Source of the DNA: Bacteroidales bacterium
Lineage (GTDB): Bacteria > Bacteroidota > Bacteroidia > Bacteroidales > F082
Assembly (NCBI GenBank): GCA_016282015.1
Contig: JAEEJS010000047.1
Span: 1-41,519, forward strand
DNA length: 41,519 bases
Direction of reading: 5' to 3'
The notes under the pieces were generated by a model. It searched no databases, was not told the origin of the DNA, and was given only the letters and a program-made list of their open reading frames with translations. The first letter of the stretch is position 1, and each line of letters starts with the position of its first letter. Positions 29,434 through 41,519 of the stretch are shown in pieces. Position numbers and translations under genes: made by a program.

Positions 29434-31146
29434 TTGAAAATGATTTTTAGTCCAAAACTCTTTTCTTGTCTTAAAAATTACGATAAAAAACAGTTCTCGG
29501 CCGACGCCATGGCTGGTCTTATCGTGGGTATTGTGGCGTTACCTTTGGCAATCGCTTTTGGTATAGCTTCGGGTGTGGGTCCAACGGAAGGACTTGTGAC
29601 AGCTATAATTGCAGGTTTCATCATCTCGTTTTTCGGAGGCAGTAAGGTGCAGATAGGAGGCCCTACAGGCGCTTTCATCGTAATCATTTACGGCATTATA
29701 CAGCAACATGGTCTGGGCGGTTTGATGATAGCCACCATAATGGCCGGTATTATTTTGATATTGATAGGAGTATTCAAACTCGGAAATGTTATAAAATTTG
29801 TGCCATACCCAGTGGTTGTCGGCTTTACCGGCGGTATTGCACTTACTATTTTCTCAACCCAGATGAACGATATGTTCGGCCTTGGCATACAGAATGTGCC
29901 GGCCAACTTCATCGACAAGTGGGTGTGCTACTTCCAGAATGCCACACATGTCAACTGGTGGGCTTTCGGAGTGGGTCTGGCCAGCTTGCTGGTTATCATC
30001 TACAGCCCGAAGATCTCGAAAAAGATTCCGGGCTCGCTGGTGGCCATAGTTCTGATGACCTTTGTGGTGTGGATACTCGAGCGTTTCTGCGGAGTTACAG
30101 GCATTACCAAGATTGGTGACCTTTATGAACTGCCTACTTCTATTCCGGCTCCGCATCTGCCGAGCCTGGGAGTTAGTGACGGCAAGTCGCTGATACAGCT
30201 GATGACAGAGTTGGCTCCTTCGGCTTTCACCATTGCCATGTTGGGTGCCATTGAGTCATTGCTTTCGGCTATGGTGGCTGACGGTGTTATAGGTGACAAA
30301 CACAATTCAAACACCGAGCTTATCGCGCAAGGTATAGCAAACATTGCCAGCCCGTTGTTTGGCGGCATCCCGGCTACAGGAGCCATCGCCCGTACCATGA
30401 CAAACATCAACAACGGCGGCAAGACACCTGTGGCAGGTTTGATTCATGCCGTGGTGTTGCTGCTGGTACTGCTTCTGCTTGGCAGTCTGGTGGGTTTGAT
30501 TCCTATGCCGTGTCTGGCTGCAGTGCTTATAATGGTGGCATACAACATGAGCGGTTGGCGTACATTCAGAATGCTTGCCAAGAACCCGAAGTCTGACTTT
30601 GCGGTGCTTATCATGACCTTCCTTCTGACAGTTATCTTCGACTTGACAATAGCCATAGAATTGGGACTTATCGCATCTATCGCACTGTTCCTGAAGCGTA
30701 CCAACGAAGCCACTGTTATCCGTTCGTTCACTAATGAGATTGACCCGAGTGACAATACCGATGTGGCTATGAGCAGCGATGAGAAACTTATTATTCCTGA
30801 AGGCGTTGAGGTGTATGAGATAGACGGACCATATTTCTTTGGAATTGCCAATAAATTCGATGAAATCGACAAGTCGGTGATAGGTAAGGAGTACAAGGTG
30901 CGAATCATCAGAATGAGGAAGGTGTCGTTTATAGACAGTACCGGTATCCACAACCTTGAGTTGCTTTGCGACACTTGCAAGCAGCGCGGTATGATAGTGG
31001 TTTTGTCAGGCGTTAACATACATGTGAGAGCTACGCTTGAGAAGGCTGGATTCATTAAGAAAATTGGAGAGGAGAACGTTTGCTCGCATATCAACTTTGC
31101 TCTGAAGAGGGCAGAGGAGATAGTCGGGGCGGAATGTGAAGCTTAA
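29434..31146 (+). CDS. SulP-family anion transporter with STAS domain
   Basis: The 570-residue inner-membrane protein starts with about 12-14 membrane segments (up to about 430). These include AGLIVGIVALPLAIAFGIAS and the SulP signature region GPTGAFIVIIYGIIQ. A cytoplasmic STAS domain follows (about 455-565, with VSFIDSTGIHNLELL). SulP proteins move sulfate, bicarbonate or other anions, usually with a cation; the substrate cannot be read here. It begins 12 bases after the Gre/Nudix gene, so the two may share a transcript. The CRISPR module and its left flanking repeat lie downstream. Confidence 0.92.
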   Translation: MKMIFSPKLFSCLKNYDKKQFSADAMAGLIVGIVALPLAIAFGIASGVGPTEGLVTAIIAGFIISFFGGSKVQIGGPTGAFIVIIYGIIQQHGLGGLMIATIMAGIILILIGVFKLGNVIKFVPYPVVVGFTGGIALTIFSTQMNDMFGLGIQNVPANFIDKWVCYFQNATHVNWWAFGVGLASLLVIIYSPKISKKIPGSLVAIVLMTFVVWILERFCGVTGITKIGDLYELPTSIPAPHLPSLGVSDGKSLIQLMTELAPSAFTIAMLGAIESLLSAMVADGVIGDKHNSNTELIAQGIANIASPLFGGIPATGAIARTMTNINNGGKTPVAGLIHAVVLLLVLLLLGSLVGLIPMPCLAAVLIMVAYNMSGWRTFRMLAKNPKSDFAVLIMTFLLTVIFDLTIAIELGLIASIALFLKRTNEATVIRSFTNEIDPSDNTDVAMSSDEKLIIPEGVEVYEIDGPYFFGIANKFDEIDKSVIGKEYKVRIIRMRKVSFIDSTGIHNLELLCDTCKQRGMIVVLSGVNIHVRATLEKAGFIKKIGEENVCSHINFALKRAEEIVGAECEA

Positions 31147-31179
31147 AGTTTTAGTATTTAGATCAGATAGTTTTAGGCG

Positions 31180-31360
31180 ATGGCGATTGTTGATCACGTT
31201 AAGGATATAGGTGACATAATCGCTGTCGCTTATCTGTTGTTTATAAATTTGTTATAAAACCAAACATTCCAGGTTCAGAATAGCAGTGCCGTTTTGGACC
31301 ATCGTCTGGCTTGGCGGAATTGCTTATCTTGCAATGAGATATTACGGTGTTTTAGTGTAG
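31180..31360 (+). pseudogene. Short two-helix membrane protein broken by a frameshift
   Basis: An ATG at 31180 opens 25 residues (MAIVDHVKDIGDIIAVAYLL, then FINLL) ending in TAA at 31255-31257. The +1 frame is open from 31247 to a TAG at 31358 and encodes KTKHSRFRIAVPFWTIVWLG and GIAYLAMRYYGVLV. Joined by one skipped base, they would give a protein of about 60 residues with two hydrophobic segments, a sensible small membrane protein. Either the gene is disrupted, the ribosome shifts frame at TTATAAAA, or a base error is present. The 31147-31179 and 31361-31394 stretches hold nothing else clear apart from a small hairpin (GCCCT/AGGGC). Confidence 0.4.
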
Positions 31361-31394
31361 AGGGATTACGCCCTTAGCAGGGCTAGGGGATTAT

Positions 31395-31598
31395 GTTCCT
31401 TTTTTCTTGATAAAAAAGGAACCGAAAAAATCAAGGCCCGAATCATCGGCCCTCGCTGCAGTCGTCCTAAGACAGTGATACTCAAGGCGGGGTAACGCTT
31501 CCTTCGGAAGCAAACGCAAGCGCCCCGCCGTGAGTATCAGCTGCTTAGTCCGCCTTTTGGGCCCTCGCTGCCCCGCATTCGGGCCGGGCCCTCGCGCA
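31395..31598 (+). repeat. Palindromic flanking repeat, left copy
   Basis: A GC-rich, highly palindromic element of about 200 bp. It begins with the hairpin GTTCCTTTTTT (31395-31405) / AAAAAAGGAAC (31412-31422). The 26-base arms at 31467-31492 and 31523-31548 (sharing TGATACTCA / TGAGTATCA and GGCGGGG / CCCCGCC) surround an apical hairpin GCTTCC/GGAAGC. Outer arms are GGCCCGAAT (31435-31443) and ATTCGGGCC (31577-31585). GGCCCTCGCTGC is directly repeated at 31448 and 31560. A diverged copy lies inverted at 40345-40546, so the pair brackets the CRISPR-Cas locus. It has no coding capacity. It could be a MITE-like element or a structured RNA. Confidence 0.8.
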
Positions 31599-31647
31599 CC
31601 GTGAATCGCAGTGGGGTAGAATTAATCGAATAGTCTTAATGTGTTGT

Positions 31648-31733
31648 AAAAAAATACCCCCGTTAAGGACGAGGGCAACCTAGATGTTTTCACAACGGAA
31701 TAATCCTTATTGTGAATTGCTTCAAAATTTGTA
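31648..31733 (-). ncRNA. tracrRNA of the type II-C CRISPR system
   Basis: Read on the minus strand, the RNA starts GUACAAAUUUUGAAGCAAUU. Its first ~25 bases (31709-31733) are complementary to the CRISPR repeat as transcribed from the minus strand, with a single one-base bulge. Next comes the nexus-like AAGGAUUAUUCCG, familiar from Bacteroidota tracrRNAs. A terminator then pairs CCCUCGU with ACGGGGG (7 bp, one G-U pair) and is followed by a T-run (31648-31654). Length is about 86 bases. It pairs with crRNA to load Cas9. Its promoter is divergent from that of cas9. The ends are estimated from promoter and T-run positions. Confidence 0.88.
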
Positions 31734-31736
31734 CTG

Positions 31737-31792
31737 CAAAAATACAATTATTTTCAATTAGTTGCAAATTATTTGAATTTTTTTTATTTTTG
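31737..31792. promoter_or_regulatory. Divergent tracrRNA/cas9 promoters with shared -33 palindrome
   Basis: The minus strand carries TTTG (31765-31768), 20 bp, then TATTTTTG (31737-31744), for the tracrRNA. The plus strand carries TTG (31762-31764), 20 bp, then TATTTTTG (31785-31792), for cas9. The two -33 boxes meet inside one TTGCAA (31762-31767), so spacing is symmetrical. The cas9 ATG follows 30 bases after its -7 box. Confidence 0.7.
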
Positions 31793-31822
31793 TGGTGTAA
31801 AATCATTAAAGATAAGCATATT

Positions 31823-34800
31823 ATGAAGAAAATTCTTGGGTTAGATTTGGGAACAAACAGTATTGGCTGGGCTGTGGTGAATGCTACAACAGAAACCCGA
31901 AATGACGGAACAACTTATTTAAAACCAGTGGATATTAGTGCTACTGGAAGCAGAATTATTCCAATGTCGGCAGATATCCTTGGTGATTTTGATAAAGGGA
32001 ACTCTGTATCGCAAACAGCAGAACGTACAAGTTATAGAAGTATACGTCGTTTACACGAGCGAAACCTTTTGCGACGTGAGAGATTGCTTCGAGTTCTGAA
32101 AATAATGGGGTTCCTTCCAGACCATTTTGCATCTCAAATTGATGTGTACGGAAAGTTTATTAATCACTGCGAACCTAAATTACCGTGGTACAAAGGGTCT
32201 GATGGTAAGATGGAGTTCCTATTCAAGGATTCTTTCAATGAGATGCTGACGGATTTTGCTGCTAATCAGCCTCAACTTATTACATGTGGCAAAAAGGTAC
32301 CATACGATTGGACCATTTATTATTTGCGCAAAAAGGCTTTGTCTCAAAAAATAACTAAAGAGGAACTTGCTTGGATATTGTTGCAGTTTAATCAAAAACG
32401 TGGTTATTACCAACTCAGAGGCGAAGAAGAAGAGCAGGAAGATAAACTTGTGGAATTCCTTGCACAAAAAGTTGTATCAGTTGAATCCACAGGAGAGAAG
32501 AAGGGAGATGAGGTTTGGTATAACGTTCATCTAGAGAACGGAATGATTTACCGTCGTACTAGTAAGGAACCGTTGGATTGGGTTGGAAAGGTAAAAGAGT
32601 TTATTGTTACTACTGATTTGGAGAAAGATGGAACGCCCAAAAGAGACAAGGAAGGTAATATCAAACGCTCTTTTCGGGCTCCAAAGGAGGACGATTGGAC
32701 TTTGATGAAAAAGAAAACGGAGGCTGACATAGAGAATAGTCATAAAACTGTTGGCTGCTATATTTACGATGCGCTTCTTCAAAATCCGAATCAAAAAATT
32801 ATTGGAAAACTTGTTCGGACTGTTGAACGCAAATATTACAAAGACGAGTTGATGCAGATTCTTGAAGTGCAGAAAGCATTGATTCCGGAGTTACGAGATG
32901 AGAAACTATATAAGGCTTGTGTGGATGAACTATATCCGAACAATGAAGCACACCGAAATAATATTGCAAATCCCAACTTCACCAACCTATTTATCAACGA
33001 CATATTGTTCTATCAGCGTCCATTGAAGAGTAAAAAGTCTTTGATAAGTGATTGTCCTTATGAATCGCATTTTGACAAAGACGGGAATGAACACCCTGTA
33101 AAGTGTGTTGCCAAATCAAATCCTTTGTTTCAAGAGTTTAGGTTGTGGCAATTCTTGCAAAATCTGAAAATTTATCAGAGAGAACGAACTATCAGCGATG
33201 GGCAATTAGATTTGTTTGGAAATGTATCTGCAGGAAAACTTCAAACGGATGTCGATGTTACTGCTGAATTACTGAAAAATGAAGATGACTATGTGGCTCT
33301 TTTCGATTGGCTTAACGACAGGGCTTCTATCAAACAGGACACGTTGCTCAATTCGTATTTCAAATTCAAAAAAGAAAAAGGGAAAGACCAGTATCCGTAT
33401 CGTTGGAACTATGTCGAGGACAAAGAATACCCTTGTAATGAAACGCGAACAACAATATTAAATGGACTGACGAAATGCGGTGTTAGTGCTGACTTCCTGA
33501 CCAAAGAACTGGAAATGGCGCTTTGGCACATTCTTTATTCAGTGGAAGATAAAATTGAGATTGGCAAGGCCCTGAAAAAGTATGCCGAAAAGAACCATTT
33601 GCCAGAGTCATTTGCAGAAGTGTTTGGCAAAATCAAACCCTTTGCCAAAGATTATGGCTCATATTCTGAAAAGGCAATCAAAAAACTGCTTCCGTTGATG
33701 CGAATTGGCAAATATTGGAGCATTGACGTAATTGACACGAAAACGAAAGAACGAATCGAAAAAATTATCACAGGAGAGTATGACGAGAACATAAAAAATC
33801 GTGTTCGTGAAAAGGCTATCAATTTGACTGATGAAACGCATTTCAAAGGTTTGCCTATTTGGTTGGCTTGCTACATTGTTTACGACCGCCACTCGGAAGC
33901 AAAGGAGATTGACAAATGGAACAAGCCAGAAGACATTGATAATTATCTAAAGGAATTCAAACAACATTCGTTACGGAATCCGATTGTGGAGCAAGTTGTT
34001 ACAGAAACATTACGCACCGTACGAGATATTTGGAGAAAAGAAGGTCAGATTGACGAAATTCACGTCGAACTTGGTCGAGAAATGAAAAATCCCGCCGACA
34101 AGCGTAAACGGATGACTGAAAATATTTTGCAAAACGAAAATACCAACCTGCGTATTAAGGCAATGCTTATGGAGTTTGTGAATCCTGAAATGGGCATTGA
34201 AAATGTTCGTCCGTATTCACCAAGCCAACAGGATATTTTGCGCATATACGAAGAAAATGCACTTGACAATCTAACAAAGGAAGACCCAGAGTTTGATTTT
34301 GTCAGCAAAATATCAAAAACAGCCCAACCTTCGAAGTCTGATATTGTGCGTTATAAACTTTGGTTGGAGCAGAAATATCGTTCGCCTTACACGGGCGAAA
34401 TGATTCCGCTTGCAAAACTTTTCACTTCAGCTTATGAGATTGAGCACGTGATTCCACAATCACGCTACTTTGATGATTCGTTTAGCAACAAAGTGATTTG
34501 TGAGGCCGAAGTAAACAAACTGAAAGACAGACAATTGGGGTTTGAATTTATCAAGAATCACAAAGGCGAGAAAGTCCAAATTAGTCAAGGAAACACGGTT
34601 GAAATTCTGTCGGTTGAGGCTTACGAGAAGTTTGTGAAAGACCACTACAATAATAACCGAGCCAAGATGAAGAAGTTGTTGATGGACGATATACCCGATG
34701 GTTTTATTGAGCGCCAGCTTAATGATAGCCGTTATATCAGCAAACTTGTAAAAGGATTGTTATCCAACATTGTTCGTGAGAAGTTACCTAATGGCGAATA

Positions 34801-36426
34801 CGAGCAAGAAGCAGTTTCAAAAAATGTAATCTCTTGCAATGGCTCAATAACCGACCATTTGAAAAAGGATTGGGGTATGGGCGATGTATGGAACAGCATT
34901 GTTTTACCACGATTCAAGAGATTGAATGAACTGACAGGCAAAAATGTTTTCACTGCAATAAGCTCAGAAGGTCACGAAATACCAGCTATGCCGCTTGAAT
35001 TGCAAAGAGGGTTCAATAAAAAACGTATTGACCACCGCCACCACGCTATGGATGCGATTGTGATTGCTTGCGCTACCTGCGACCACGTGAATCTACTCAA
35101 TAATGAAGCCGCTCATTCCAAGCATAACGCTAACCGTTATCAGTTGCAACGCAAACTGCGCAGGTATGAGAAAGTGATGATTGACGGCAACGAACGCGAA
35201 ATTGCCAAAGAGTTTATCAAGCCGTGGGACACGTTTACCACAGACACAAAACATGCTCTTGAGGTTATTATTGTCAGCTTCAAGCAGAACTTGCGAGTCA
35301 TTAATAAGACCACCAATCATTACCAGCATTATGACGAAAACGGCAAGAAAGTCCTTGTACCGCAACAAAAAGGTGATAGTTGGGCTGTAAGGAAATCTAT
35401 GCATAAGGATACGGTCTTTGGTGAGGTGAATCTGCGCATGAAAAAAACGGTTTCTTTGAATGAGGCCGTTAAGCAACCTGAACGCATTGTGAACAAAGAT
35501 TTCAAGATTAAGGTGAAAGAACTGCTGAGAGAAGGCCGAGATGTCAAATACATCAAGAAATATGTTGAGGAGAACAAAGATGTATGGTCAGATATCAACC
35601 TGTCCAAGATTGAGGTTTACTATTTCACCAATGAAACCAATGACCGGTATTTTGCCACACGTAAGCCGCTTGATACATCATTCGATAAAAAGAAGATAGA
35701 GACGAGTGTCACTGATACAGGAATTCAGAAGATACTTTTGGCGCATCTTGCGTCAAAAGGAGAAAATCCGGAATTGGCTTTCTCGCCTGATGGCATTGAC
35801 GAAATGAACAAAAACATCACCATCCTTAATGGTGGGCAATATCATAAACCTATTCTTAAAGTGCGTGTTTATGAAAAAGCCGATAAGTTTGCAGTGGGAC
35901 AAACAGGGAATAAAACAGCCAAGTTTGTGGAAGCAGCAAAAGGAACTAATTTGTTCTTTGCAGTGCTTGCAACGGAGGTTGAAAACAAAGAAACAGGAGA
36001 AACTGAAAGTGTGCGTTCCTATTGCACCATTCCTTTGAATGTGATGATTGAATGCCAGAAAAAGTACGGAAATCAATGGCGTAACAACATTGAGATGTGT
36101 TTAAAGGAAGAAAGGCTGGCGGCTAATGATGCAAAGCTGCTCTTTATACTTTCGCCTAATGACCTGGTGTATCTGCCGACTAATGAGGAGTTGAAAGAAG
36201 GCATTAGAGAGGTTGATAAGAAACGGATATACAAGATGGTGTCATCGTCAGGTAATCAATGTTTCTTTGTCAGCGAAAAAGTAGCTAAACCAATAGTTGA
36301 TAAGGTTGAGTTTTCTTCACTGAATAAGACAGAACGAGCTATTTCAGGCGAGATGATTAAAACGACTTGCGTACCTATTAAAGTTGACCGACTTGGTAAT
36401 ATTATTGAACTAAACGGTCAAAAATT

Positions 36427-36430
<4 letters not shown>
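31823..36430 (+). CDS. cas9: CRISPR-associated endonuclease Cas9 (type II-C)
   Basis: The 1535-residue nuclease is guided by crRNA:tracrRNA to cut DNA. RuvC-I is KKILGLDLGTNSIGWAVV with Asp8. An Arg-rich bridge helix (RTSYRSIRRLHERNLLRRER) follows at about 65-90. RuvC-II is IHVELGREM with Glu749, HNH is YEIEHVIPQSRYFDDSFSNK with His875, and RuvC-III is DHRHHAMDAIV with His1074 and Asp1077. All catalytic residues are present, so both strands should be cut. It is at the large end for II-C. The ATG at 31823 gives the family N-terminus. Its stop overlaps the cas1 start (ATGA). Absence of csn2 and cas4 supports subtype II-C. Confidence 0.97.
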
Positions 36431-37675
<1,245 letters not shown>

Positions 37676-37697
37676 AAATGAAATTTGGTATGAAATT

Positions 37698-37730
37698 AAA
37701 AAATCCGGCTTGTTGAAGGTCGGATTTTTT
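37698..37730. terminator. Bidirectional terminator between cas2 and the CRISPR array
   Basis: AAAAAATCCG (37698-37707) and CGGATTTTTT (37721-37730) form a 10-bp stem with a 13-base loop. The T-run on either strand makes it usable from both sides: it can end the cas9-cas1-cas2 mRNA and the array transcript coming the other way. Confidence 0.75.
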
Positions 37731-37782
37731 ATTTCTGAAACAACTTTTAATATTTTGTAAATCAATTATTTGCAAGGATTGT
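37731..37782. promoter_or_regulatory. Putative CRISPR leader (integration end)
   Basis: An AT-rich 52-bp stretch between the terminator and the first repeat. It borders the non-degenerate end of the array next to cas2, so new spacers are probably added here. No promoter directed into the array was found in it, in keeping with transcription from the opposite direction. The role is inferred from array asymmetry. Confidence 0.45.
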
Positions 37783-40283
37783 GTTGTTTCCGATGCAAAT
37801 TTACACAAATTTTGAAAGCAATTCACAACTACCACAGCGGCCGTTGCCATCAAGATGGTGTTGTTTCCGATGCAAATTTACACAAATTTTGAAAGCAATT
37901 CACAACACATGCTTGTTCAACACTTCTTCAATGTTGTTGTTTCCGATGCAAATTTACACAAATTTTGAAAGCAATTCACAACTTCTATGCTTTGCAGGGA
38001 TTGGGTTTGACGTTGTTTCCGATGCAAATTTACACAAATTTTGAAAGCAATTCACAACTATTATGCTCAGAATACCGCTGCGGTTATGTTGTTTCCGATG
38101 CAAATTTACACAAATTTTGAAAGCAATTCACAACTCAAGTTGTATCTCAACGGCGAGGAGGTTGGTTGTTTCCGATGCAAATTTACACAAATTTTGAAAG
38201 CAATTCACAACCAGATAGAGTTCGATATTGCAGGCACATAGTTGTTTCCGATGCAAATTTACACAAATTTTGAAAGCAATTCACAACGCTTTTTAGGGTG
38301 CCATTATGATTCAGGCAGTTGTTTCCGATGCAAATTTACACAAATTTTGAAAGCAATTCACAACTATTTGAAAGCATATTCATTTTCAGAGGAGTTGTTT
38401 CCGATGCAAATTTACACAAATTTTGAAAGCAATTCACAACTTAAGCTCTCCTTGTATTCTTCTATTTTGAGTTGTTTCCGATGCAAATTTACACAAATTT
38501 TGAAAGCAATTCACAACCATACAAGAAAAACATCATTGATATTATAAGTTGTTTCCGATGCAAATTTACACAAATTTTGAAAGCAATTCACAACTGTATG
38601 GTATTTTTCTTTACCAATTCCTGAGTTGTTTCCGATGCAAATTTACACAAATTTTGAAAGCAATTCACAACAAGTACCGCCGCTATGTAAACGGCGGTAA
38701 GTTGTTTCCGATGCAAATTTACACAAATTTTGAAAGCAATTCACAACATCTTTCGTACTTTTGAATTGGCTGAATGTGTTGTTTTCGATGCAAATTTACA
38801 CAAAGTTTGAAAGCAATTCACTACTGTTATAACTTTGCATCGTCATTCAGTAACGTTGTTTCCGATGCAAATTTACACAAATTTTGAAAGCAATTCACAA
38901 CAAGTTATGAGTAACAAAAAAACAGCCGGAGTTGTTTCCGATGCAAATTTACACAAATTTTGAAAGCAATTCACAACATTCACATCACTCACTATTTTCA
39001 AACATTGTTGTTTCCGATGCAAATTTACACAAATTTTGAAAGCAATTCACAACGCCATGGCAGCCATTCCGAGTATAGATATAGTTGTTTCCGATGCAAA
39101 TTTACACAAATTTTGAAAGCAATTCACAACGTATTTAAGTAGGGAACATTATTGCGAATTGTTGTTTCCGATGCAAATTTACACAAATTTTGAAAGCAAT
39201 TCACAACAAAAACGGCGTAATTTTTGCGCTAAAAACGGTTGTTTCCGATGCAAATTTACACAAATTTTGAAAGCAATTCACAACCTAAAAAGAGATTTTT
39301 GGCATTCCAAACAAGTTGTTTCCGATGCAAATTTACACAAATTTTGAAAGCAATTCACAACGCGCTAAATCTGACCCAAAATACGTATTTAGTTGTTTCC
39401 GATGCAAATTTACACAAATTTTGAAAGCAATTCACAACCGGCTTATATACACAAGTTAAAAACTTATTGTTGTTTCCGATGCAAATTTACACAAATTTTG
39501 AAAGCAATTCACAACTGTAAACGGTATTATAGTCAATTTTTTCGAGTTGTTTCCGATGCAAATTTACACAAATTTTGAAAGCAATTCACAACTAACTTGT
39601 CAACAAAAAAGTGAAAAAATTTGTTGTTTCCGATGCAAATTTACACAAATTTTGAAAGCAATTCACAACGATCCTGAGTCGCATCAAAGCGGCTCATCGT
39701 TGTTTCCGATGCAAATTTACACAAATTTTGAAAGCAATTCACAACGCGTTTATACAATCCATACTTTGAACATCTGTTGTTTCCGATGCAAATTTACACA
39801 AATTTTGAAAGCAATTCACAACTTCCATTTTCGCGTATTCAAAAGTCATTTAGTTGTTTCCGATGCAAATTTACACAAATTTTGAAAGCAATTCACAACA
39901 GATATATGATGGTACTGCTTACAATTTCAGTTGTTTCCGATGCAAATTTACACAAATTTTGAAAGCAATTCACAACTGATATGATTGAACGCAAGCCGCA
40001 TGCTTAGTTGTTTCCGATGCAAATTTACACAAATTTTGAAAGCAATTCACAACTGCGCTGTTTCATTTGTGGAATTGTCGACAGTTGTTTCCGATGCAAA
40101 TTTACACAAATTTTGAAAGCAATTCACAACATCGGTTCATCGCTATTAGTTTGTGTAATAGTTGTTTCCGATGCAAATTTACACAAATTTTGAAAGCAAT
40201 TCACAACAAACAATGCGGAAATATCTCGGCGCAGGTGTTGTTTCCGATGCAAATTTACACAAATTTTGACAACAACACACGAC
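37783..40283 (-). CRISPR. Type II-C CRISPR array, 33 repeats and 32 spacers
   Basis: The 47-bp repeat, in crRNA orientation (minus strand), starts GTTGTGAATTGCTTTC and ends GCATCGGAAACAAC. Repeats recur every 76 or 77 bp from 37783 to 40237; spacers are 30 bp (22 of them) or 29 bp (10). All spacers differ. Repeat 14 (38778-38824) has three changes. The last repeat (40237-40283) is strongly changed over 14 bases at its right end. tracrRNA complementarity sets the transcribed strand as minus. Each repeat contains TAAATTTG, a match to the TAnnTTTG promoter box, on that strand. The degenerate repeat is at the 5' end of transcription, so spacers near cas2 should be the newest. Confidence 0.97.
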
Positions 40284-40344
40284 TAAATTCTAAAAATCAA
40301 AAGCTTCACAAATACGGGGTTTAGGCTGGTGCAGCACTCGCTGT

Positions 40345-40546
40345 GCGTCGGCCTGGCCCGAATGCGGGGCAGCGGGGGCCCCAAAGGCGGACTAAGCAGA
40401 TGATACTCACAGCGGGGCGCATGTCGTTTGCTTTCGCAAGAAAGCAGTTCCCCGCCTTGAGTATCACTGCCTTAGGCCGACTGCAGCGAGGGGCCGATAA
40501 TTCGGGCCTTGATTTTTTGGATACTTTTTTATCAAGAAAAAAGTAT
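40345..40546 (-). repeat. Palindromic flanking repeat, right copy (inverted)
   Basis: This is the same element as at 31395-31598, in opposite orientation and diverged by perhaps one base in seven (by eye). The poly-T hairpin is ATACTTTTTT (40521-40530) / AAAAAAGTAT (40537-40546). The outer bases differ from the left copy on both arms so that pairing is kept. The apical hairpin is GCTTTC (40430-40435) / GAAAGC (40440-40445) against GCTTCC/GGAAGC on the left, again compensatory. The frame that can be read through it is not a gene. The stretch between the array and this copy (40284-40344) shows nothing else recognisable. Confidence 0.8.
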
Positions 40547-40626
40547 CATCACTCCTCGCTTTGTCAAAGCGAAAAATTTCACATTTTAAAGGTTTTTATC
40601 ATTTAAAAATTATTATTAATAATGTC
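40547..40626. other. Short AT-rich spacer with a small hairpin
   Basis: CGCTTT and AAAGCG (about 40557-40571) form a 6-bp hairpin with a 3-base loop just outside the right flanking repeat. The rest is AT-rich and shows no gene. Confidence 0.35.
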
Positions 40627-40657
40627 TTGCAACATTGGAAAATAATCCATAAATTTG
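40627..40657 (+). promoter_or_regulatory. Promoter of the atoD-kal operon
   Basis: TTG (40627-40629) is followed after 20 bp by TAAATTTG (40650-40657), matching the Bacteroidota -33/-7 arrangement. The atoD ATG lies 63 bases further on, so the mRNA has an AT-rich leader of about 60 bases. Confidence 0.6.
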
Positions 40658-40720
40658 CAGGCAAATTTTTTGTTATTTGGATAAAAAGATAAGTTAAACA
40701 AATTAAAAATATAAACAACT

Positions 40721-41371
40721 ATGAATAAGCAGATTACATTGGAGCAGGCCGTCGAAAAGGTTCATGACGGCATGACTATCATGTTCGGCGGATTCCTCGG
40801 AGTGGGAAGCGCAGTGCAAATCATCGACGCTATCGTTGAGAAAGGCGTGAAGGATTTAACAATCATCGCTAACGATACCGCTTACGACAACATCGCCCAT
40901 GGCAAGCTCGTTGCCAACCATCAGGTGAAGAAGGCTATCGTGTCGCACACAGGTACCAACAAGGAGACTGCCGCTCAGAAGAACGCAGGCACCCTCGAGG
41001 TTGAATATGTGCCACAGGGTACATTGGCAGAGCGTATCAGAGCCTACGGCGCTGGTCTGGGTGGAGTGCTCACCCCAACAGGTCTTGGCACCATCATGCA
41101 GGATGGCAAGCAGATTGTGAAAGTGGACGGCAAAGACTATCTCCTTGAGAAGCCTCTCAAAGCTGATATCGCTTTCTTGCGCGCCAACATCGTCGACGAG
41201 TTCGGTAACATGGTGTTCCTCGGAACAACCAACAACTTCAACCCACTCATGGCTACAGCTGCCGACTACGTGGTGGTCGAGGCCGAGAAGCTCGTGAAGG
41301 TTGGAGAAATCAAGCCGGAATGCGTACACGCTTCAGGTATTTATGTTGATGGAATTTACGTAGAAAAATAA
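40721..41371 (+). CDS. atoD: CoA-transferase alpha subunit (butyrate/acetoacetate type)
   Basis: The 216-residue protein is the AtoD-type subunit of a two-subunit CoA-transferase that exchanges CoA between butyryl-CoA (or acetyl-CoA) and acetoacetate. The family's glycine-rich GGFLGVGS (23-30), the [20 protein letters not shown] segment and the terminal blocks are all present. The catalytic Glu is on the beta subunit, AtoA, which is not in the window. The gene that follows after 7 bases encodes 3-aminobutyryl-CoA ammonia-lyase, so this enzyme most likely serves lysine fermentation to acetate and butyrate. It is the first gene of the operon and has its own promoter. Confidence 0.92.
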
Positions 41372-41378
41372 TAATATC

Positions 41379-41519
41379 ATGGAAAAAGAATATAGAACAA
41401 AGATTAGACTTCGCATGAGTGCGAAGGATGCTCACTACGGTGGCAATTTGGTTGACGGCGCTCACATGGTTCACCTCTTCGGTGATGTGGCTACCGAACT
41501 TTTGATTATGCGTGACGGC
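41379..41519 (+). CDS. kal: 3-aminobutyryl-CoA ammonia-lyase, N-terminal part (cut by window end)
   Basis: The first 47 residues are visible: [20 protein letters not shown] followed by [20 protein letters not shown] and LLIMRDG. This opening is characteristic of Kal, a hotdog-fold enzyme that removes ammonia from L-3-aminobutyryl-CoA to give crotonyl-CoA in lysine fermentation. It starts 7 bases after atoD. The gene runs off the right edge and the remainder cannot be judged. Identification rests on the N-terminus and on the CoA-transferase neighbour. Confidence 0.8.

What the first reader, a model, noticed from the sequence alone, without database searches (positions are those of the whole stretch)
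31395..40546. Whole CRISPR-Cas9 locus bracketed by inverted, co-varying palindromic repeats
Two copies of a ~200-bp element lie in opposite orientation immediately outside tracrRNA/cas9 and the array. Their stems differ by compensatory changes: GTTCC...GGAAC versus ATACT...AGTAT in the poly-T hairpin, and GCTTCC/GGAAGC versus GCTTTC/GAAAGC at the apex. This implies that the folded form is selected, so it may be a structured RNA or a hairpin-mobilised DNA element, not just debris. Inverted copies could also let RecA flip the ~8.7-kb module or help it spread as a unit. The element is unknown to me.
Basis: partly seen in the sequence, partly recalled or inferred. Interest (0 to 1): 0.72.

Follow-up and report, generated by a model that had tools for sequence, protein, structure and literature searches.

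The report
Folded-end cassette carrying CRISPR-Cas9
In a bacterial genome whose relatives are gut Bacteroidales, a complete CRISPR-Cas9 locus sits between two inverted copies of a folded DNA end that also brackets restriction systems and other genes in related species and recurs patchily in other Bacteroidota; the ends are likely those of a mobile cassette that would have to be moved by an enzyme not yet identified.

Summary
Two ~200-bp copies lie inverted around tracrRNA/cas9/cas1/cas2/array. They belong to a repeat family: 10 matches in this genome, 19 of 60 genomes searched, its own included, the 40-nt end motif in 56 of 99 genomes of the genus and patchily beyond. The end is a T/A-rich hairpin whose loop is complementary to a downstream hexamer; stem, loop pairing and a long-range closing stem show compensatory changes. 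Neighbouring ends mostly face outward (25 +/- against 2 -/+) and bracket unrelated cargo: a type I restriction system, a type II restriction system, a UvrD/GajB-like helicase, unknown genes. Relatives lack the block at the window site, and one other site holds different cargo in different species. I read it as a transposase-less cassette family with structured ends. RAYT/REPIN was tested and not supported. Movement, enzyme, and RNA versus DNA form are unresolved. No other Cas9 locus examined carries these ends, so CRISPR cargo is a single case.

The parts
31360..31394 (+). left outer module: GC hairpin (31370-31383) plus GGGGATTAT
   Evidence: 35-bp match at 86% outside the copy on G000:C68; by eye also outside the right copy on C65
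31395..31435 (+). left end: hairpin GTTCCTTTTTT-CTTGAT-AAAAAAGGAAC, linker, ATCAAG complementary to the loop
31435..31585 (+). left subterminal domain closed by GGCCCGAAT (31435-31443) / ATTCGGGCC (31577-31585), containing a long imperfect stem
   Evidence: covariance model R1 match 31395-31587
31649..40290 (+). cargo: complete CRISPR-Cas9 module (ends approximate)
   Evidence: extent of homology to the G063 Cas9 locus
31649..31731 (-). predicted tracrRNA (anti-repeat 31706-31730)
   Evidence: inverted repeats I8-I11 with the CRISPR repeat; similar stretch upstream of other cas9 genes; tracrRNA role from established knowledge
31823..36430 (+). cas9
   Evidence: translation, 89% identical relative in G063; name by recall of the family
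36427..37341 (+). cas1
   Evidence: PADLOC Cas1_II E 5e-118
37343..37675 (+). cas2
   Evidence: PADLOC Cas2_II E 2e-49
37783..40290 (+). CRISPR array, 47-nt repeats, 31 of them matched to an Rfam CRISPR repeat below its gathering score (28.2 against 41 bits)
40355..40508 (-). right subterminal domain, closing stem GGCCCGAAT (40500-40508) / ATTCGGGCC (40355-40363)
   Evidence: R1 match 40353-40547
40508..40547 (-). right end: hairpin GATACTTTTTT-CTTGAT-AAAAAAGTATC, linker, ATCAAG
40548..40583 (.). right outer stretch with hairpin CGCTTTGTCAAAGCG (40557-40571), not found beside the orthologous gene of relatives
   Evidence: homology of the right flank to relatives starts at 40584 to 40596 in the better-matching loci, later in others

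Best explanation
The two copies are predicted to be the structured inverted ends of a DNA cassette, likely inserted here as a unit and likely mobile, with a whole CRISPR-Cas9 locus as cargo and no transposase gene of its own. Shown: the ends are a repeat family whose secondary structure is kept by compensatory change; they bracket different cargo in different genomes; the block is absent from the same place in relatives; one site holds different cargo in different species, and one kind of cargo stands at more than one site. Inferred: an enzyme acting in trans recognises the folded end (a hairpin whose loop pairs with the downstream NTCAAG hexamer) as single-stranded or cruciform DNA, joins two ends around whatever lies between, and inserts the unit without a target duplication. 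Cargo that helps against phages would then be kept by selection.
For: Family and copy number. End structure: loop/tail hexamers fully complementary in 61 of 65 distinct ends, in three types; 96.7% of cells paired against 85.7% shuffled, 7 of 17 pairs changed on both sides, covariation score reached by 0 of 500 shuffles. Closing stem: five fully complementary versions in 30 of 34 copies. Orientation: 25 +/- against 2 -/+ of 43 neighbour pairs; 8 against 0 of 16 in the unselected pattern list. Empty places: G017 and G069 at the window site, no end in 29 and 21 further loci of the two flanking genes; G089 at the site next to L102's 290-aa gene, where two genes abut without element. Cargo turnover: three different cargo sets in six genomes at the border of ORF families c0 and c9/c51, and a lone hairpin in G000 there. 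Same helicase family at that border (L219, L234) and at another site (L104, L110), and beside an end at a third place (L229). Defence cargo: 15 of 30 cargo genes against 2 of 20 flanking genes with a PADLOC match at E<=1e-9 (Fisher p 0.005). Patchiness: 6 of 395 genomes in the phylum sample.
Against: No transposition has been seen and no enzyme found. About 210 bp left of the window element (31147-31359) match nothing fetched, and about 36-48 bp right of it are not in relatives, so the window insertion is not perfectly clean. The two window ends are of different subtypes (left nearest the right copy and C65R at 92%, right nearest C6a at 94%), as if two separate copies met around the locus. Sixteen of 43 close neighbours have the same orientation, and two of the 25 +/- pairs (L206, L221) are doubtful. 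The number of further pair types is not above shuffles (223 of 500), and five of the six loop-tail pairs hardly vary, so only the sixth tests that pairing. PADLOC counts include three copies of one helicase family and seven genes of one operon, the 1e-9 cut was chosen after seeing the results, and at E<=1e-3 the counts are 16 of 30 against 4 of 20. Fourteen of the 30 cargo genes come from cassettes with no PADLOC match at the stricter cut. Only one CRISPR case.
Confidence: 0.58

Rival explanations
1. The ends are dispersed solo repeats, and cassettes are made and exchanged by ordinary homologous recombination between repeats or between flanking core genes; no dedicated enzyme moves the pair.
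For: Window ends are of two subtypes; at the c0/c9 border two species share the same outer end and flank but differ inside, with the switch just after the TCAAG motif (L109 and L216); solo elements of 186-484 bp exist; nested ends occur.
Against: Recombination alone does not explain why neighbours are mostly hairpin-outward (25 against 2), nor insertion into a bare gene junction.
Confidence: 0.22
2. The ends are REP-like elements and pairs are giant REPINs moved by a Y1 (RAYT, TnpA-REP) transposase acting in trans.
For: REPINs are also two inverted folded repeats around a spacer; a Bacteroidetes subclass (2.6) of these transposases is flanked by atypical structures that lack GT[AG]G (PMC6006769, passages and one section read).
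Against: G000, G005, G015 and G017 carry ends but no PF01797 match; the Empedobacter tilapiae genome (G123) has 9 ends by pattern and no match; of 59 Y1 loci scanned (30 of the matches, all 29) none has an end like the consensus within the fetched flank of at most 1.5 kb (a few low-score hits without the consensus were taken as chance).
Confidence: 0.08
3. The repeat is a functional RNA (terminator, attenuator or processing element) placed at gene borders, and the pairs are a by-product.
For: Very stable RNA fold and loop-tail complementarity; GC hairpins with T-rich stretches outside many copies; a copy sits right after a stop codon in G034, G078, G074 and G008.
Against: DNA parameters fold it equally well against shuffles; neither strand nor nucleic acid is clearly favoured; RNA function does not explain empty sites and cargo turnover; no Rfam family matches.
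Confidence: 0.1
4. The arrangement is an assembly artefact at repeats in a fragmented draft genome.
For: The genome is in 74 contigs and repeats can cause misjoins.
Against: The two flanking genes are neighbours in G017 and G069, so the contig is consistent on both sides; another cassette recurs at the same site in two genomes (L103 and L217).
Confidence: 0.02

Closest known systems
MITEs and MITE-bounded cargo elements
   Same: short non-coding copies with inverted ends, several per genome, no transposase inside, possible mobilisation in trans
   Different: ends are covarying hairpins with a loop-tail complementarity, no target duplication seen, cargo up to a ~10.7-kb unit with whole defence operons, no partner transposase known
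REPINs / RAYT systems and TIRtrons
   Same: two inverted folded repeats around a spacer; copies scattered between genes
   Different: no GT[AG]G foot, no Y1 transposase beside the copies examined and none found in several genomes that carry ends; long cargo
IS200/IS605 elements
   Same: subterminal hairpins at the ends
   Different: there the two ends are not inverted copies of each other (recalled); here they are, and no TnpA was found in this genome
Integron cassettes with attC sites
   Same: folded DNA sites next to exchangeable gene cassettes (recalled)
   Different: inverted pair instead of one site per cassette in a row; an integrase was not looked for
Defence hot spots and islands at conserved loci
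   Same: different cargo at the same core-gene border in different species
   Different: cassettes have their own pair of conserved folded ends

Membership tests
REPIN / RAYT | inverted pair of folded repeats around a spacer | tested here: met
REPIN / RAYT | GT[AG]G (or related) tetranucleotide foot | tested here: not met
   consensus GTTACTTTTnnCTTGAn...; base before it is T in 93 of 115
REPIN / RAYT | Y1 transposase gene flanked by copies | tested here: not met
   0 of 59 Y1 loci with an end like the consensus; G000 has no Y1 match
MITE of a DDE transposon | terminal inverted repeats, non-coding, multicopy | tested here: met
   nine solo elements of 186-484 bp
MITE of a DDE transposon | short target-site duplication | tested here: inconclusive
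   none visible by eye in nine solo elements or at the G034/G089 site, but exact borders are not settled
MITE of a DDE transposon | matching autonomous element in the genome | tested here: inconclusive
   no transposase among 20 proteins in or near cassettes scanned with Pfam; whole genomes not searched for transposase families other than PF01797
Structured RNA family (Rfam) | match to a described family | tested here: not met
   no match at the two copies, E<=1 over 30500-41519
Structured RNA | expressed as RNA | not testable with these tools
   no expression data
CRISPR-specific mobile module | other Cas9 loci of the same type bracketed too | tested here: not met
   0 of 16 further Cas9 loci in the fetched stretch, 0 of 9 wider ones

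The most novel reading that the evidence does not exclude
A Bacteroidota-wide class of transposase-less mobile cassettes whose ends are covarying hairpins with a loop-tail pairing code, recognised as folded DNA by an undiscovered recombinase, which packages and swaps whole defence systems, CRISPR-Cas9 included; cargo of unknown function between such ends would then be a list of candidate new defence systems.
Probability: 0.3. Interest if true: 0.88.

Novelty: new variant of a known kind. Interest (0 to 1): 0.68.

Why it matters
It gives a concrete, searchable signature (a 40-nt covarying end) for how defence genes may be shuffled in Bacteroidota where no transposase marks the island. If the ends are recognised as folded DNA, a new recombination enzyme is waiting to be found; and the unknown genes between ends can be tested directly for anti-phage activity.

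Tried and rejected
RAYT/REPIN: rejected on the Y1 searches. A shared enzyme next to the ends: all-against-all comparison of ORFs over the window and 85 loci found shared families; those I read look like core genes of orthologous sites or cargo, none like a transposase. Pfam scans of 20 proteins gave no transposase or recombinase; not all 20 are proven cargo: those of L221, L226 and L231 lie by ends without a clear +/- partner, and the 609-aa S1 protein of L221 is more likely a flanking gene. A 208-aa ORF inside a Parabacteroides element looks like low-complexity coding noise (my judgement). Phage or virus carriage: no match in phages or, with the strict pattern, in viral contigs; three Parabacteroides distasonis records filed as plasmids have partial matches, two of which I opened; their genes look chromosomal to me. 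Deciding RNA versus DNA and the strand by wobble pairs or by the predicted closing stem: no clear answer. Direct target duplications: none seen by eye. Literature: six searches, of which 48 and 58 found no paper, and passages plus one section each of two papers (PMC6006769; PMC3733652) gave no description of this element; this covers only the open library without preprints, and the supplements that list the atypical structures were not open to me.

Limits and dropped rows: the scanner asks for at least 8 of 11 stem pairs, [CA]TTGA in the loop and TCAAG or TCAAA downstream, so stem pairing and five loop-tail pairs in A3 are partly selected for; the sixth loop base and the BLAST-derived alignment A1 are not. 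A3 holds the 34 ends of exactly 40 nt out of the 54 distinct ends listed. The scanner gave 7 hits on reversed sequence against 140 observed over 774,749 bases. Some of the pattern hits (for example in G009 and G101) look like chance, its list was cut at the end, and the reversed pattern had 3 hits in all. The strict pattern misses the window's own ends (G000 scores 0), so those counts are lower bounds. In one search four of 34 copies lack a perfect 9-bp partner; two of them score no better than shuffles over 9 bp. Low-score scanner hits without the consensus (window 38116, L011 4003, L015, L325, L328, L086) I took as chance.
Full report
What is there. The window holds two inverted copies of a ~200-bp element at 31395-31598 (+) and 40342-40543 (-). 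Between them are, in order, a predicted tracrRNA on the minus strand, cas9 (31823-36430), cas1, cas2 and an array of 47-nt repeats. Against the Cas9 locus of another genome of the genus (G063, Cas9 89% identical) homology runs from 31649 to about 40290 and stops close to the elements on both sides.

It is a family. In its own genome the left copy finds 10 places, itself and partial ones included; 19 of 60 genomes searched, its own included, have at least one match. Several lie as inverted pairs on one contig. A loose pattern for the loop and tail finds 56 of 99 genomes of the genus, with 3 hits of the reversed pattern in all; a few of its hits look like chance. A strict pattern, which misses the window's own subtypes, scanned over one genome for each of 84,980 species gives 40 stretches, in Bacteroidales, Parabacteroides, Empedobacter, Chitinophaga, Taibaiella, Anditalea and single MAGs labelled Calditrichia and Saccharibacteria; a similar one hits 6 of 395 genomes in an even sample of the phylum, with no reversed-pattern hit in the rows. 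The element has no match in Rfam or in the phage collection, and the strict pattern none in viral contigs. Patchy spread is what one expects of something mobile.

The end module. Position 1 to ~40 reads, in consensus, GTTACTTTTnnCTTGAnnnAAAAGTAACCAAAAnnTCAAG. It forms an 11-bp hairpin with a 6-nt loop CTTGAN, and the last six bases NTCAAG are complementary to the loop. Over 65 distinct ends the loop/tail pairs are CTTGAT/ATCAAG 34, CTTGAA/TTCAAG 15, CTTGAC/GTCAAG 12 and four others; my scanner requires the five constant letters, so the free test is the sixth base. On 34 gap-free ends, including those of Empedobacter, Chitinophaga and Taibaiella, 96.7% of cells pair (shuffled 85.7%), 7 of 17 pairs have two-sided changes, and the covariation score is 0.278 against 0.059, reached by 0 of 500 shuffles; the number of further pair types is not unusual (223 of 500); sliding the partner by 1-3 columns drops pairing to 33-54%. 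The stem part is helped by my scanner's pairing requirement; the BLAST-found alignment A1 of 27 copies, free of it, shows two-sided changes at 16 of 33 predicted pairs.

The subterminal domain. In the genus the end is followed by a ~150-nt domain closed by a 9-bp stem: GGCCCGAAT/ATTCGGGCC in 15 copies, GGCCAAAAA/TTTTTGGCC in 12, and GGCCGACAT/ATGTCGGCC, GGCCAAAAC/GTTTTGGCC, GGCCCAAAA/TTTTGGGCC in one each; 4 of 34 copies lack a perfect partner. Inside is a long imperfect stem with its own compensatory changes. Some ends carry a different, shorter domain after TCAAG (L107, L108, L216 right, L219, L220), and in Parabacteroides and Empedobacter another folded core follows. So the end is the constant part and the inside is modular. 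RNA and DNA parameters both give strong folds, and the closing stem is predicted somewhat more often on the outer-to-inner strand (13 against 8 of 22 with RNA, 12 against 8 with DNA parameters), which does not settle strand or nucleic acid.

The ends come in outward-facing pairs. Over the fetched loci, non-redundant neighbours within 12 kb are +/- 25, -/- 11, +/+ 5 and -/+ 2; the two -/+ cases (L108, L193) lie between neighbouring short elements, and two of the +/- cases (L206, L221) are doubtful. Because many loci were fetched for having pairs, the unselected list matters more: among 150 listed pattern hits the 16 neighbours within 12 kb are +/- 8, same strand 8, -/+ 0, and by eye adds seven more +/- and no -/+. 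Pairs range from 186 bp with no cargo to 10.7 kb. Nested ends (+ + - -) occur in Parabacteroides massiliensis.

Cargo. G011: HsdR, HsdS, HsdM, PrrC, two PDC-M19 proteins and a protein whose first 30 residues match AbiH. G034 (and G078 at the same site): type II methyltransferase and restriction enzyme. An 857-957-aa UvrD/GajB-like helicase: G096 and G063 at one border, G032 and G026 at another (in G026 only one end was found), and beside an end in G077. G000 C65 and G034: peptidyl-arginine-deiminase-like proteins at two sites. Nine further cargo proteins scanned have no Pfam family above its cut-off. By gene, 15 of 30 cargo proteins and 2 of 20 flanking proteins match PADLOC at E<=1e-9, 16 and 4 at E<=1e-3; the flanking proteins were picked by hand, the stricter cut was chosen afterwards, and Cas9 itself was not put to PADLOC. 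Genes are not independent (one operon of seven, one family three times), so by cassette the fair statement is: three cassettes hold clear defence systems (CRISPR-Cas9, type I, type II restriction), a helicase family is suggestive, and the rest is unknown.

Insertion. In G017 and G069 the gene left of the window element (570 aa, SulP-like by my reading) and the gene right of it (CoA-transferase-like by my reading) are ~200 bp apart with neither element nor CRISPR; G005, G032 and G072 have other genes there and no ends. None of 29 other loci of the right gene and 21 of the left gene shows an end near it (one score-8 hit taken as chance). In G089 the gene pair that holds a cassette in G034 is directly abutting; by eye the insertion shows no direct duplication, and one side carries 11 extra T-rich bases. 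At the border between ORF families c0 and c9/c51 three different cargo sets stand in six genomes: 428/185/181-aa proteins in G075, the helicase in G096 and G063, and a 264-266-aa protein (c50) in G011, G121 and, broken, G032; in G011 and G121 only one end was found. G000 has only a lone hairpin of the same kind there. In G011 and G075 the outer end and flank are the same while the inside differs just after TCAAG, which could be exchange by recombination. Where the same cargo can be compared between genomes at one site its orientation is the same, so flipping is not seen.

What it is not. Copies are not next to Y1 transposase genes: none of 59 loci scanned; G000, three relatives and an Empedobacter genome with ends have no such gene. 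It is not a CRISPR-specific bracket: none of 16 further Cas9 loci carries ends in the fetched stretch, nor nine wider ones.

How it likely works. The simplest reading is a non-autonomous cassette: two folded ends, read as single-stranded or extruded DNA by an enzyme coded elsewhere, moved together with what lies between. The loop-tail pairing, kept by compensatory change across Bacteroidota, would be the recognition feature. Selection for phage defence would keep useful cargo. Movement, enzyme and DNA form are inferred. The main rival is passive exchange by homologous recombination between dispersed copies, which the mixed subtypes of the window ends favour. The window insertion also has ~210 bp on the left (31147-31359) with no match in any fetched locus and 36-48 bp on the right not in relatives.

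Known kinds. It works like a MITE or REPIN with cargo, but it fails the REPIN membership test (foot, transposase) and no autonomous partner is known. Hence: new variant of a known kind, with a fair chance of being a new kind.

Noticed in passing
L015 6847-6874 (G000:C74): A lone poly-T hairpin of the same type stands at an intergenic site that holds cargo in six other genomes (G075, G096, G063, G011, G032, G121); possibly a scar of lost cargo.
   Followed up: partly
L102, L011: Peptidyl-arginine-deiminase-like proteins (PAD_porph) with partners of no known family are cargo at two unrelated sites; a candidate unknown system.
   Followed up: partly
L104, L110, L219, L234, L229: An 857-957-aa UvrD/GajB-like helicase is single-gene cargo at two sites and stands beside an end at a third; candidate defence gene.
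   Followed up: partly
L101, L106, L111, L112, L013, L225, L228: One ORF family (RhuM-like by my reading; the L101 member matches PADLOC PDC-S05/S23) repeatedly stands next to ends, inside or just outside.
   Followed up: no
window 31147-31359: About 210 bp between the 570-aa gene and the left outer hairpin match nothing fetched; may be a remnant of a small gene.
   Followed up: partly
L213, L353 (Parabacteroides massiliensis): Nested ends in the order + + - -, as if one element had inserted into another.
   Followed up: no
G032:C93 9922 to 30141: A +/- pair of ends about 20 kb apart, a possible very large cassette.
   Followed up: no
many copies, outer side: A small GC hairpin followed by a T-rich stretch, terminator-like and pointing into the element, stands outside many ends with varying sequence.
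   Followed up: partly
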